DNA of 64,000 nt from Vicinamibacterales bacterium (GTDB lineage: Bacteria; Acidobacteriota; Vicinamibacteria; Vicinamibacterales; UBA2999), in the NCBI GenBank assembly GCA_030680175.1, contig JAUXWO010000055.1, positions 62,001 to 126,000 of the forward strand, read 5' to 3'. Shown here one piece after another: positions 3,752-45,130 of the stretch. Position numbers and translations under genes: made by a program. Below the pieces are notes generated by a model. The model saw only the letters and a program-made list of their open reading frames with translations, was not told the DNA's origin and did no database searches. Within the stretch, counting starts at the first letter, position 1; every line of letters starts with the position of its first letter.

Positions 3752-4307
3752 AGCGATCGACGTCAAGCGCAAGATGTACTTCGAGCACGAGAATGCGCCG
3801 TACCACTGCATCGATGTGGAGATTTCCAAACCCACCGCGCGGGGCGGCCAGACGCTGGTCCGCCTGAAGATGCGGAACCTGCTGACGCGCGCCGTGTTCG
3901 ACAAGACCTTCAAGGCCGGCGAGAAGTTCGGCGAGCCCGACCTCGTCACCGTGTCGGCGACCTATCTCTACAAGGACGACGGCTACCACTTCATGGATCA
4001 GGAGTCGTTCGAGACCGTCACGCTGAACGCGGATACCGTGGGTGACGATGCGGAGCTGCTGGTGGACAACGCGGAGGTCCAGATCCAGAAGTACAACGGC
4101 AACGCGATCGGGATGCAGCTGCCGCCGCATGTGGAGCTGACGATCACCTACACGGAGCCGGCCACCCGTGGCGACACCGCGAGCGGCGGGGCGACCAAGG
4201 CCGCCACGCTCGAGACGGGCCTCGAGATCCGCGTGCCCCTCTTCATCAAGGAGGGGGAGCGTGTGAAGGTGCATACCGAAACGCGGGAGTTTGCGGGCCG
4301 CGCGTAG
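3735..4307 (+). CDS. Elongation factor P-like protein, EfpL/YeiP type
   Basis: A 190-residue protein with the three-domain EF-P layout: N-terminal KOW-like domain, central OB domain (YLYKDDGYHFMDQESFE) and C-terminal OB domain ending VKVHTETREFAGRA. EF-P binds stalled ribosomes between P and E sites and relieves stalling on proline-rich stretches. The tip loop reads SKPTARGGQ with Arg36 at the apex. This resembles the PTARG tip of EfpL/YeiP rather than the lysine tip of canonical EF-P. The C-terminal GLEIRVPLFIKEGERVKVH also matches that subgroup. The ATG at 3735 gives the family's normal start; the frame extends upstream through the 21-base repeat but without family similarity. No modification enzyme is present nearby. 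Confidence 0.85.
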   Translation: MAGLIEAIDVKRKMYFEHENAPYHCIDVEISKPTARGGQTLVRLKMRNLLTRAVFDKTFKAGEKFGEPDLVTVSATYLYKDDGYHFMDQESFETVTLNADTVGDDAELLVDNAEVQIQKYNGNAIGMQLPPHVELTITYTEPATRGDTASGGATKAATLETGLEIRVPLFIKEGERVKVHTETREFAGRA

Positions 4308-22678: not shown

Positions 22679-23187
22679 AAGCCCGTTCGTTCAGCCACGT
22701 CGGCGTCACCGTCTCGGACTTCAATCGCGCGGTGAAGTTCTGGTGGGACGTGTTCGGCTGCCCGCTCGTCGGCGTCTCGGAAGCGCCGATCGATCGCGTG
22801 CAGGGCTTCTTCGGCGTCGACGCGCCGGACGGCACGTGCCGTATCGGCTGGATCCGCATTCCCGGCGGCGCGGTGATCGAGATCTTCCACTTCGAGCCGA
22901 AAGAGGGCGCCGAGCCGGTGCACTGGAACCGCGTGGGGCTGACGCACATCTGTCTGAACGTGCGCGGCATCCACAAGTGGCACGATCACCTGGTGGCGAA
23001 GGGCGTCGAGATCGTGAGCCCGCCCGAGCAGTCGCCCCGCGGGCACTGGCTGTTCTTCGTGAAGGACTTCGACGGCAACCTGATCGAGATCACCGACCTC
23101 GGACACATGTACTACGTGCTCGGCTGGCTCGGGCCGCTCGGAGGGTTCATCTTCAGGCGGGGGATGTATAGGAAGTACTACGAATAG
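22675..23187 (+). CDS. VOC superfamily (glyoxalase/dioxygenase-like) protein
   Basis: A 170-residue protein with two paired beta-alpha-beta modules: SFSHVGVTVSDFNRAVKFW with the first metal His, GAVIEIFHFEP, GLTHICLNVRGI with a second His, and DFDGNLIEITDL with the terminal Glu. This His/His/Glu pattern fits a metal-dependent vicinal-oxygen-chelate enzyme such as an epimerase, isomerase or dioxygenase. The ATG at 22675 overlaps the GMC stop. Together with the two upstream oxidoreductases it suggests oxidation and rearrangement of a sugar or cyclitol. The stop codon is the first base of a nine-base repeat tract. Confidence 0.85.
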   Translation: MKARSFSHVGVTVSDFNRAVKFWWDVFGCPLVGVSEAPIDRVQGFFGVDAPDGTCRIGWIRIPGGAVIEIFHFEPKEGAEPVHWNRVGLTHICLNVRGIHKWHDHLVAKGVEIVSPPEQSPRGHWLFFVKDFDGNLIEITDLGHMYYVLGWLGPLGGFIFRRGMYRKYYE

Positions 23188-23246
23188 GTGCCCAGGGTGC
23201 CCAGGGTGCCCGGGGTGCCCAAGGTGCCCAGGGTGCCCAAGGTGCC
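23187..23246 (+). repeat. Nine-base tandem repeat GGTGCCCAG, about 6.7 copies
   Basis: Perfect nine-base periodicity from 23187, with variants only in the last two bases (AG, GG or AA). It begins with the last base of the VOC stop codon and ends at the stop codon of the minus-strand thioredoxin gene, filling the whole convergent gap. The same unit in reverse complement fills 24021-24160 on the other side of the thioredoxin gene. Confidence 0.9.
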
Positions 23247-23720
23247 TCAGTGCTTTCGTGCCGTGGGGGCCTGGGCGATGAAGGCTTCGATGCGGTCGGC
23301 GGACATGACGCCTGCCGTGCGGGCGGCTTCGCGGCCGCCGGCGTAGACCGCCAGCGTCGGGATGGACTGGATCCCCAGTCGGGCCGCGAGATCGGACACG
23401 GCTTCGGTGTCGACCTTGACGACCAGCAGGCGGCCGGCGTTGGCACTCGCCACCTTCGCCACCTCGGGCGCGACCATGCGGCACGGCGCGCACCACGCCG
23501 CCCAGAAGTCGACGAGCACCGGCAGCGGCGACTGGCGCACCAGCGCATCGAAGTGCGCCGCGGTGGCCACGTCAACCGGCGTTGAGGGCGCGGGCAGATC
23601 CGTCTGGCACTTCGCGCACCGCGCGCGCGCACCCAACCGGGCATATGCCACCCGGTTCTGCGCCCCGCACGCCCCACACGCCATCACGATCCCCTTGTCG
23701 TCCGTCCTGAGGCCAGCCAT
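23247..23720 (-). CDS. trxC: Thioredoxin 2-like protein with N-terminal zinc ribbon
   Basis: A 157-residue protein. It starts with a four-cysteine zinc ribbon (CGACGAQNR and CAKCQTDLP) followed by a thioredoxin fold with active site WCAPC in VDFWAAWCAPCRMVAP. Downstream are KVDTEAVSDLAARLGIQSIPTL with the cis-proline. The zinc ribbon plus thioredoxin is the TrxC architecture; the active-site Gly of WCGPC is Ala here. TrxC reduces protein disulfides in the cytoplasm and is usually tied to oxidative stress. GGAGGG eight bases before the ATG at 23720 supports the start. The gene is flanked by inverted nine-base repeat tracts. Confidence 0.88.
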   Translation of the reverse strand: MAGLRTDDKGIVMACGACGAQNRVAYARLGARARCAKCQTDLPAPSTPVDVATAAHFDALVRQSPLPVLVDFWAAWCAPCRMVAPEVAKVASANAGRLLVVKVDTEAVSDLAARLGIQSIPTLAVYAGGREAARTAGVMSADRIEAFIAQAPTARKH

Positions 23721-23776
23721 ACACGCTCCCTCCTTCCATCCTACGCCTTCAGCACACCTCGGCACCTGATCCCGAT

Positions 23777-24008
23777 CGGCACTTGAGTTGCCGCCGCTCC
23801 GGCCTCCGGGAGCGCGCGCTCGCAACCTGCGCCTCCGTGCGCGCGCGCTTTCGTACTGACGCCCATCGCGCCGCGCCTACCCGGCCCCCCTTCGGCTGAG
23901 CCTACGGCGCCGGCGCTCGAAAGCGCACGCTCCCTGCGGCGCAGGTTGCGTACTGACGCCCATCGCGCCCCTCCCACGTCGGCCTCCGCGACGCCAACTC
24001 AAGTGCCG
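23777..24008. repeat. 232-base intergenic element bounded by 14-base inverted ends
   Basis: The ends CGGCACTTGAGTTG (23777-23790) and CAACTCAAGTGCCG (23995-24008) are perfect reverse complements. Inside, CGCAACCTGCGCC pairs with GGCGCAGGTTGCG and GCGCTTTCG pairs with CGAAAGCGC at equal spacing, giving nested imperfect palindromes. A 21-base direct repeat starting CGTACTGACGCCCATC occurs at 23852-23872 and 23949-23969, once after each inner arm. No credible gene is present. The left end also fits GGCAC-N5-TTGC, the sigma-54 -24/-12 pattern, which may be chance. The architecture resembles a mobile or repetitive element. Confidence 0.65.
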
Positions 24009-24020
24009 CTCGGGATGTGA

Positions 24021-24160
24021 GGCACCCCAGCACCCCGGCACCCAGCACCCGGGCACCCGGGCACCGTGGGCACCCCGGCACCGTGGGCACCCCGGGCACC
24101 CGGGGCACTCTGAGCACTCTGAGCGCCCTGAGCACCCTGAGCACCCTGAGCACCCCCGGT
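24021..24160 (-). repeat. Nine-base tandem repeat, reverse orientation of the 23187 tract
   Basis: About 15 imperfect units of GGGCACCCN/GAGCACCCT with nine-base spacing. The unit is the reverse complement of GGTGCCCAG found at 23187-23246. It ends eight bases before TACGAT and the start of the alpha/beta hydrolase. The two tracts could pair in single-stranded DNA or RNA around the thioredoxin gene. Confidence 0.8.
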
Positions 24161-24179
24161 ACCTTGATACGATCCCCTG

Positions 24180-24983
24180 ATGTCCCTGTCCTCGACGCGT
24201 GTCGCTGCCACAGATCATCCGACCCGCGCTCTCGTGATGCTGCACGGCATCTACGGCCGCGGCCGTAACTGGCAGGGGATCGCCCGTGCGTTGGTCAAGG
24301 CGCGGCCGGAGTACGCCTGCTGGCTCGTGGACATGCCGCATCACGGGGACTCGGGACCCGGCGCGCATGCCGACGGCGTGCTCGGGTTTGCCGAGGACCT
24401 GCGGGACTGGAGCGTGGCGCAGGGCGTGACGCCCGATGCCGTGCTTGGGCATTCCTACGGAGGCAAGGTCGCGCTGGCGTACGCGGCCGCCGGCCACGTG
24501 CGGCCACTCCAGGTGTGGGTGATCGACTCGACGCCCGAGACCAAGCCGCCGTCAGGCAGCGCGTGGGGCATGCTCGAGATCGTGCGCGCGCTCCCGCGGC
24601 GGTTCGCGACCCGCGACGAGGCGATCGCCGGCATCGTGGCGGGCGGCTACGCGCTCGGCGTGGCGCAGTGGATGAGCACCAACCTCACGCGCGATGCCGC
24701 CGGCGGGTTCACGTGGCGCCTCGACTTCGACGTGATGGACCGGCTCCTCCACGATTTCTTCACCACCGACCTCTGGGCCATCGTCGAGGCCGGCGATGCA
24801 CAGCTCGATCTGCACTTCCTGAAGGCGTCGGAGTCGAATGCGATGTCGGAGACGGCCGTCGCGCGCATCACGGCCGCCGCCGGCGACCACGTGCACCTGC
24901 ACCACCGTCCCGGCGGCCACTGGATTCACGCCGAGTCGCCGGAAATCGTGACGGAGCTGCTGGTCGGCTCGCTGCCCTCGTAG
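24180..24983 (+). CDS. Alpha/beta hydrolase
   Basis: A 267-residue protein with an alpha/beta hydrolase core: oxyanion-hole region LVMLHGIYGRGRNWQ, LVDMPHHGDS, nucleophile elbow GHSYGGK (Ser near 104) and the catalytic His in RPGGHWIH near residue 250. This layout is like YbfF-type acyl-CoA esterases, but the substrate is unknown. TACGAT lies at 24168-24173, six bases before the ATG, and there is no Shine-Dalgarno sequence, suggesting a leaderless transcript. A 30-base inverted repeat follows the stop after 16 bases. Confidence 0.85.
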   Translation: MSLSSTRVAATDHPTRALVMLHGIYGRGRNWQGIARALVKARPEYACWLVDMPHHGDSGPGAHADGVLGFAEDLRDWSVAQGVTPDAVLGHSYGGKVALAYAAAGHVRPLQVWVIDSTPETKPPSGSAWGMLEIVRALPRRFATRDEAIAGIVAGGYALGVAQWMSTNLTRDAAGGFTWRLDFDVMDRLLHDFFTTDLWAIVEAGDAQLDLHFLKASESNAMSETAVARITAAAGDHVHLHHRPGGHWIHAESPEIVTELLVGSLPS

Positions 24984-24999
24984 GCACGGCCGACGGACA

Positions 25000-25129
25000 A
25001 ACACGAAGAACACGAAGGCCACGAAGACGCCGAAAGAGAAAACATCCAGGATCGGGGACGACGTTGGAGTCCGGACCCCTGACCTGAGTGTCCTTCCAAC
25101 GTCTTCGTGGCCTTCGTGTTCTTCGTGTT
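25000..25129. repeat. Inverted repeat with 30-base perfect arms built from CACGAAG units
   Basis: Arms at 25000-25029 and 25100-25129 are perfect reverse complements. Each arm is itself three nine-base units (CACGAAGAA, CACGAAGGC, CACGAAGAC). An inner ACGTTGGA/TCCAACGT pair extends the palindrome. It lies between the convergent hydrolase and GAF genes and could act as a bidirectional terminator. The large loop and repeat-built arms look more like a dispersed MITE-type element. Confidence 0.75.
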
Positions 25130-45014: not shown

Positions 45015-45029
45015 GGGAACTAGTGGAGT

Positions 45030-45127
45030 GTTGTTGACGATTCACTACCGGGCCGCCCGTTGGGCGGCCCGCGGAATCGCGGTTGAGCAGAGGCGCGGGT
45101 AGTACCTCTTCAGTCGATACAGTCCAC
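45030..45127 (-). repeat. Dispersed structured element, copy 2
   Basis: The core GGGCCGCCC-GTT-GGGCGGCCC (45050-45070) is a perfect hairpin. Around it, TTGACGAT, CACTACC, CGCGGAATC and TACCTCTTCAGTCGA are shared with copy 3 (60001-60100, reverse complement). The element is directly upstream of the minus-strand propeller protein, in the same relative orientation as copy 3 has to its downstream plus-strand gene. A degraded permease tail follows on the far side. Confidence 0.75.
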
Positions 45128-45130
45128 GAG

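What the first reader, a model, noticed from the sequence alone, without database searches (positions are those of the whole stretch)
23777..24008. 232-base element with 14-base inverted ends and nested palindromes
Perfect terminal inverted repeats, two pairs of inner complementary arms at equal spacing, and a 21-base direct repeat after each inner arm form a designed-looking unit. The left end also matches GGCAC-N5-TTGC. There is no gene inside. It may be a new MITE family or a regulatory RNA.
Basis: seen in the sequence. Interest (0 to 1): 0.5.

Follow-up and report, generated by a model that had tools for sequence, protein, structure and literature searches.

The report
New family of palindromic DNA repeats
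This stretch is one of seven scattered copies of a roughly 250-base hairpin-forming DNA element in this bacterium, belonging to a repeat family found in related bacteria that keeps its folded shape while its sequence changes; what moves it and what it does are not known.

Summary
23777-24008 has perfect 14-bp inverted ends, inner complementary arms and two 21-base direct repeats. The palindrome really spans 23769-24016 and folds as one long nested hairpin (z -8.5). It is one of 7 dispersed copies in its own genome (6 whole, 1 interrupted by another repeat), plus an end fragment. Covariance models find the family in 13 of 193 genomes of the class (own included). In a sample of 396 genomes of the phylum, the 3 that matched are all in the window's order. 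Shared layout: outer stem, unpaired tag (GGCGTCAGyACG-like), stem A with a purine-rich internal loop, second tag, apical stem. Pairing is kept by changes on both sides in 25 of 39 model pairs; the outer arms diverge faster than the core yet still pair. At two loci one congener has the element and the other lacks it. No target-site duplication, cognate transposase, promoter, terminator or Rfam match was found. Best reading: a new family of non-autonomous foldback (REP/BIME-like) mobile DNA recognised by structure, mover unknown. "New MITE" is half right (MITE hallmarks are not met). "Regulatory RNA" is neither shown nor excluded.

The parts
23769..24016 (-). whole palindromic element (the strand carrying GGGCGTCAGTACG is taken as its forward strand)
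   Evidence: inverted arms, fold z -8.45, homology to the other copies ends about here
23769..23804 (.). outer arm, left; its first 22 bp (ATCCCGATCGGCACTTGAGTTG) are the terminal inverted repeat
23981..24016 (.). outer arm, right
23808..23977 (-). conserved core recognised by covariance model R1 (163 bits; the window copy is one of the sequences R1 was built from)
23821..23853 (.). stem A, one arm, with purine-rich internal loop
23918..23950 (.). stem A, other arm
23949..23961 (-). first copy of the tag GGGCGTCAGTACG (M1); bulges out of the hairpin in the window copy
23852..23864 (-). second copy of the tag GGGCGTCAGTACG (M2)
23852..23872 (+). 21-base direct repeat, copy 1 (contains M2)
   Evidence: read
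23949..23969 (+). 21-base direct repeat, copy 2 (contains M1)
   Evidence: read
23868..23917 (-). apical stem-loop (type with ...CCGTAGGC...GGCCGGGTAGG...); limits approximate

Best explanation
The element is a copy of a new family of non-autonomous, palindromic (foldback) mobile DNA elements of one acidobacterial order. It works in the manner of REP/BIME repeats. Shown: it is dispersed and multi-copy, it is present or absent at orthologous sites of two congeners, and it has a conserved two-tag hairpin layout kept through compensatory change. Inferred: when single-stranded (for example at the lagging strand of a fork) it forms a hairpin of about 250-300 nt; the two unpaired tags and the purine-rich internal loop, arranged with pseudo-two-fold symmetry, are what an enzyme supplied in trans recognises; the outer arms need only to pair, so they drift quickly, and intrastrand template switching may keep them alike. 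The enzyme is not identified.
For: Seven copies in the own genome with flanks that look unrelated by eye, apart from GGTGCC-type tracts beside C71 and C13. 23 core sequences from 9 genomes, 5 genera and two families align with the tags in place. On A7, 95.0% of cells pair, 25 of 39 pairs change on both sides, 145 such cells against 38.8 in shuffles (0/500), and slid structures pair 33-45% of cells (that alignment is fitted to the model). On plain MAFFT alignments the counts are 15 of 86 pairs and 9 of 39. Unconstrained folds of the 23 elements with flanks keep at least 9 of 10 apical pairs in 19, at least 7 of 14 stem-A pairs in 20, and at least 4 of the outer pairs in 21. Within the own genome the outer arms are 0.54-0.91 identical between copies and the core 0.85-0.96, yet the arms pair. 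Presence/absence: G030 C113 filled, G025 orthologue without it; G025 C25a filled, G030 without it. A third site is shared, with about 47 nt of the core missing in G025. The C11 copy is interrupted by a second, high-copy repeat.
Against: No target-site duplication and no clean empty site: the intergenic DNA at the compared loci is too diverged. No mover found. The three Y1 transposase genes of the own genome have other repeats near them, not this element. A Y1 profile finds a Y1 gene in only 1 of 24 element-bearing stretches, L053. G051 carries two elements and is not among the 104 genomes with a Y1_Tnp match. 1-7 matches per positive genome, far below typical REPs. In 3 of 23 elements (both G129 C326 copies, G130 C228) the unconstrained fold does not form stem A. 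The conserved unpaired motifs could equally be protein- or ligand-binding parts of an RNA.
Confidence: 0.58

Rival explanations
1. It is a structured RNA (small RNA or UTR element) that acts after transcription, and copies spread by duplication. The tags and internal loops bind a protein or ligand.
For: Deep covariation. Unpaired motifs are conserved across two families. G.T exceeds A.C on the tag-forward strand in g1 (44 against 7), g81 (35 against 16) and g33 (7 against 1, one element). Consensus folding is stronger on that strand (-150 against -129 and -135 against -123 kcal/mol). The window copy lies just upstream of a thioredoxin gene and the C25 copy just upstream of an Hsp70/DnaK gene.
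Against: G.T does not exceed A.C in g10 (9 against 11) or g41 (6 against 14). One-sided changes that keep a pair are fewer than two-sided ones (33 against 145 cells). Gene contexts differ (rough gene calls). No promoter-like or terminator-like site at the window copy (sigma-70 type only). No convincing Rfam match.
Confidence: 0.24
2. It is a classical MITE: an internally deleted transposon moved by a DDE transposase that recognises the terminal inverted repeats.
For: 22-bp inverted ends shared, within 3 mismatches at one or both ends, by five of the seven own-genome copies and by an end fragment.
Against: No target-site duplication by eye in six whole copies. The ends differ in sequence in two copies of the same genome (C25, C50) while staying largely complementary. 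No other element with these ends in the draft genome.
Confidence: 0.12
3. It is an old, inert palindrome. Arm similarity is produced by quasi-palindrome correction (template switching), without selection on structure.
For: Two-sided changes dominate. A.C mismatches are not rare (47 against 89 G.T over 26 elements).
Against: Correction should also erase the unpaired tags and the purine loop, yet these persist across two families. Copies are dispersed and differ between congeners.
Confidence: 0.06

Closest known systems
REP / BIME / REPIN elements with RAYT (TnpA-REP) enzymes
   Same: Intergenic, palindromic, with an unpaired tag at a hairpin; dispersed copies; paired units can make larger hairpins (PMC3733652: abstract, passages and section 16 read).
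   Different: About 250-330 nt instead of 20-40 bp. Two tags in direct orientation inside one hairpin. Few copies. No Y1 gene flanked by it among the loci tested.
CGTC-tagged REPs (Di Nocera 2013)
   Same: The tag contains CGTC; that group is reported to lack a dedicated transposase (PMC3733652).
   Different: Reported stems are 8-9 bp with 4-5 nt loops and CCA-like tails. The five phyla named there for CGTC repeats do not include Acidobacteria. The CGTC match may be chance.
TIRtrons / TIRYT repeats of Acidobacteria
   Same: Y1 transposase genes with long inverted repeats, some with dispersed copies, are described in Acidobacteria (PMC3733652, section 16). The own genome has Y1 genes with inverted repeats nearby.
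   Different: The repeats beside those genes here carry GGGGTCAG/GGGGTCTG motifs, not this element.
ERIC / YPAL-type long intergenic palindromes
   Same: Recalled: about 127-170 bp palindromic intergenic repeats that can fold.
   Different: Recalled only; no sequence comparison was made. Different lineage, and no two-tag layout that I know of.

Membership tests
REP/RAYT (REPtron) elements | palindromic extragenic repeat with an unpaired conserved tag | tested here: met
REP/RAYT (REPtron) elements | unit of 20-40 bp, many copies | tested here: not met
   hairpins of 251-333 nt over 23 elements; 7 copies in the own genome
REP/RAYT (REPtron) elements | a Y1 transposase gene flanked by the repeat in at least one genome | tested here: not met
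   R1 on 36 sources (35 Y1 loci, some overlapping, plus L057): best E 0.064, inside the Y1 gene itself. A Y1 profile on 24 element-bearing stretches (222,423 bases, window included) finds one Y1 gene, in L053, its frame ending 1.8 kb from an element with a 619-aa amidohydrolase ORF between. Y1 loci of most element-bearing genomes outside the own one were not fetched.
REP/RAYT (REPtron) elements | GTAG/GGAG guide tetranucleotide at the hairpin foot | tested here: not met
   the conserved tag is GGCGTCAG-like
MITE | terminal inverted repeats and no coding capacity | tested here: met
   coding judged from mechanical ORFs only
MITE | target-site duplication | tested here: not met
   flanks of six whole copies read by eye; no clean empty site
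MITE | autonomous partner sharing the ends | tested here: inconclusive
   9 TIR matches, all in copies or a fragment, but the genome is a draft of 143 contigs and relatives were not searched for these ends
structured non-coding RNA | covariation supporting a conserved structure | tested here: met
structured non-coding RNA | strand-specific tolerance of G.U over A.C | tested here: inconclusive
   yes in g1 and g81, no in g10 and g41
structured non-coding RNA | transcription | not testable with these tools
   no expression data; the promoter scan found 0 sites but covers the sigma-70 type only
known Rfam families | match at the curated threshold | tested here: not met
   Searches (window 23000-25000; six relatives' loci): only a tRNA outside the elements and two sub-threshold matches outside them

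The most novel reading that the evidence does not exclude
The family is a new kind of structure-recognised mobile element. A pseudo-two-fold-symmetric rod hairpin with two direct tags is moved or copied by a dimeric enzyme that reads the unpaired tags and loops while ignoring the outer-arm sequence. Interchangeable apical modules are shared between bacterial families.
Probability: 0.2. Interest if true: 0.78.

Novelty: new variant of a known kind. Interest (0 to 1): 0.46.

Why it matters
It adds a long, strongly covarying palindromic repeat family from a little-studied phylum, where most small-repeat work that I know of concerns Proteobacteria (recalled). If the tags and loops are the recognition code, it makes a testable case of structure-only recognition in mobile DNA. 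It also bears on how long hairpins survive in bacterial chromosomes. If it turns out to be RNA, it is an undescribed structured RNA family.

Tried and rejected
Sigma-54 promoter reading of GGCAC-N5-TTGC: not kept in the C25 and C50 copies, dropped. Known RNA families: none. Plasmid or phage origin: no blastn match at E 1e-5 in 72,556 plasmid and 50,697 phage records, and no exact two-tag pattern in the viral collection. Y1/RAYT enzymes as mover: see the membership test.

Rows set aside: short BLAST matches in other relatives (L020, L021, L022, L024, L025, L026) did not show the family layout by eye; I took L024 and L026 to be NAD kinase coding sequence by eye only. The weak R1 match L058:1343-1451 (E 0.0088), the truncated G025 copy, the interrupted C11 copy and the weaker G051 copy were left out of A7. 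The further weak R2 matches (G024, G007, G132, G134, and an extra copy each in G130, G133 and G135) were not analysed, apart from one listing of sequence for G135. Gene orientation around copies comes from a crude GC-frame caller and is used only as a rough guide.

In three literature searches I saw no listed paper describing this element: 15 of 55 listed; 7 of 7; 10 of 38,832 listed, a poor query. Only PMC papers under open licences are held.

On re-checking for this report I added, corrected the number of genomes behind A7 (9) and changed the MITE 'autonomous partner' test to inconclusive.

Full report
WHAT IS THERE. The reported features are all in the sequence. The palindrome is longer than reported: 23769-24016, with 36-nt outer arms (83% complementary) and a 33-nt inner stem (85%). 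It folds far better than shuffles (z -8.45 as RNA, -7.41 as DNA). The '21-base direct repeats' hold a tag, GGGCGTCAGTACG on the minus strand, that stands just 5' of each inner arm and bulges out of the hairpin. On the minus strand the order is: outer arm, tag 1, arm of stem A, apical stem-loop, tag 2, other arm of stem A, outer arm. The two halves are also a direct repeat (72 nt, 71%, spacing 97), so I read the hairpin as pseudo-two-fold symmetric about the purine-rich internal loop of stem A (inference).

COPIES IN THE SAME GENOME. The window lies in a 4.98-Mb draft genome (143 contigs). Blastn finds copies on C71 (window), C13, C65 and C137 (93-95% identical to the window copy), C25 and C50 (83%), and an interrupted one on C11. 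An end fragment lies on C22. By eye, homology stops at about the palindrome ends and the flanks differ, except that C71 and C13 both lie beside GGTGCC-type tracts. I see no target-site duplication. The copies on C25 and C50 have different outer-arm sequences that still largely pair. Between copies, outer arms are 0.54-0.91 identical and cores 0.85-0.96.

RELATIVES. Weak DNA matches in genus g10 proved to be whole elements with the same layout. One of these genomes corresponds by contig number and length to the named record JADZCN010000113.1, 'Acidobacteria bacterium isolate SJ725'. A covariance model of the core (R1, 168 positions, 11 sequences) matched in 9 of 162 genomes of the order, own included, among them members of a second family, f10. 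A second model (R2, 23 sequences) matched in 13 of 193 genomes of the class; four of these (G024, G007, G132, G134) rest on weaker matches that I did not examine. In a sample of 396 genomes drawn across the phylum, 3 matched, all in this order; the call does not say how many of the 396 lie outside it. Infernal's stricter filters were used, so weak members may be missed.

STRUCTURE IS KEPT WHILE SEQUENCE CHANGES. On plain MAFFT alignments, 15 of 86 pairs (6 own-genome copies) and 9 of 39 pairs (11 sequences from g1 and g10) show changes on both sides. On A7 (23 sequences from 9 genomes; fitted to the model), 95.0% of cells pair and 25 of 39 pairs change on both sides. No shuffle of 500 reaches this, and slid structures pair 33-45% of cells. 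In unconstrained folds of the 23 elements with 70-base flanks, 19 keep at least 9 of 10 apical model pairs, 20 at least 7 of 14 stem-A pairs and 21 at least 4 outer pairs. Both G129 C326 copies and G130 C228 do not form stem A in that fold.

DNA OR RNA? If a transcribed RNA were selected, G.U mismatches should outnumber A.C ones on one strand. In pairs predicted on both strands, the own-genome copies have 12 columns with G.T and 1 with A.C on the tag-forward strand; the g10 copies have 3 and 3. With a strand-neutral hairpin alignment of 26 elements the totals are 89 G.T and 47 A.C (16 elements with more G.T, 6 with more A.C, 4 ties). By genus, over 23 elements, the G.T/A.C counts are g1 44/7, g81 35/16, g33 7/1, g10 9/11 and g41 6/14. 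Related copies are not independent. Five tRNAs from the fetched DNA gave 8 G.T and 0 A.C, a very small yardstick from a program that expects G.U. I call this test inconclusive.

MOBILITY. G030 C113 carries an element between two convergent genes (MaoC-like and peptidase M28). In its congener G025 the orthologous genes are adjacent with no element between them (matches of 90-95%). Conversely, G025 has one between an amidohydrolase and a VWA gene where G030 has other repeats and no R1 match. A third site is shared, with about 47 nt of the core missing in G025. The intergenic DNA is too diverged to show a junction, so gain and loss are not told apart.

MODULES. The apical part comes in types that cross family lines. 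g10 (family f1) and three copies of G133 (f10) are 74% alike there, while g10 and g1 (same family) are 35% alike; outside the apex the same comparisons give 58% and 62% (gaps count as differences, which lowers the apical figure between types). This means either old subfamilies or exchange.

WHO MOVES IT? The own genome has three Y1 transposase genes. Near them lie inverted repeats with GGGGTCAG or GGGGTCTG motifs: 47-bp perfect at one, only 19 bp at another. Such motifs recall the GGGGWSAS of TIRYT genes in PMC3733652 (section 16 read). R1 finds no element at those or 29 other fetched Y1 loci (best E 0.064). A Y1 profile made from 22 fetched proteins finds a Y1 gene in 1 of 24 element-bearing stretches (L053), with another gene between; its three positive controls were all found. 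Y1 genes are present in 104 of 162 genomes of the order, so co-occurrence says little, and G051 carries elements without a listed Y1 match. PMC6006769 (passages only) reports class 3 Y1 proteins in Acidobacteria flanked by atypical structures. That is a lead, not tested here.

VERDICT. A real and, as far as my three literature searches show, undescribed family of long palindromic repeats limited to one order in the genomes searched. It works most like REP/BIME elements, but it fails several tests of membership in that family and in MITEs. Mechanism and function remain inferred.

Noticed in passing
window 45020-45130 (G000:C71:107020-107130), also L068 about 4145-4262: A second, much more abundant repeat of about 111 bp with CTAGTGGAG...CTCCACTAG ends: 49 matches in the own genome (one only 40 bases; 40 of 139 candidates scored), some in head-to-tail rows at 107-bp spacing. 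It interrupts the C11 copy and adjoins the C22 end fragment; by eye, part of it lies beside the C65 copy.
   Followed up: partly
window 24019-24170: Degenerate GGCACC/GAGCACC tandem repeats right beside the element. Similar GGTGCC tracts flank the C13 copy, and GGCAGGTCC tracts flank the C50 copy (by eye).
   Followed up: no
L054 2043-2089, 3078-3124 and 3844-3888 (G000:C142): A Y1 transposase gene flanked by perfect 47-bp inverted repeats, each itself palindromic (GGGGTCAGATCTTGATCC...), with a third copy nearby.
   Followed up: partly
L099 2180-3225 (G129:C326): Two elements in the same orientation about 0.6 kb apart. A Y1 profile finds nothing in this stretch; other transposases were not searched for.
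   Followed up: partly
window 23247-23723: Thioredoxin gene with an N-terminal zinc ribbon of thioredoxin-2 type, transcribed away from the element.
   Followed up: no
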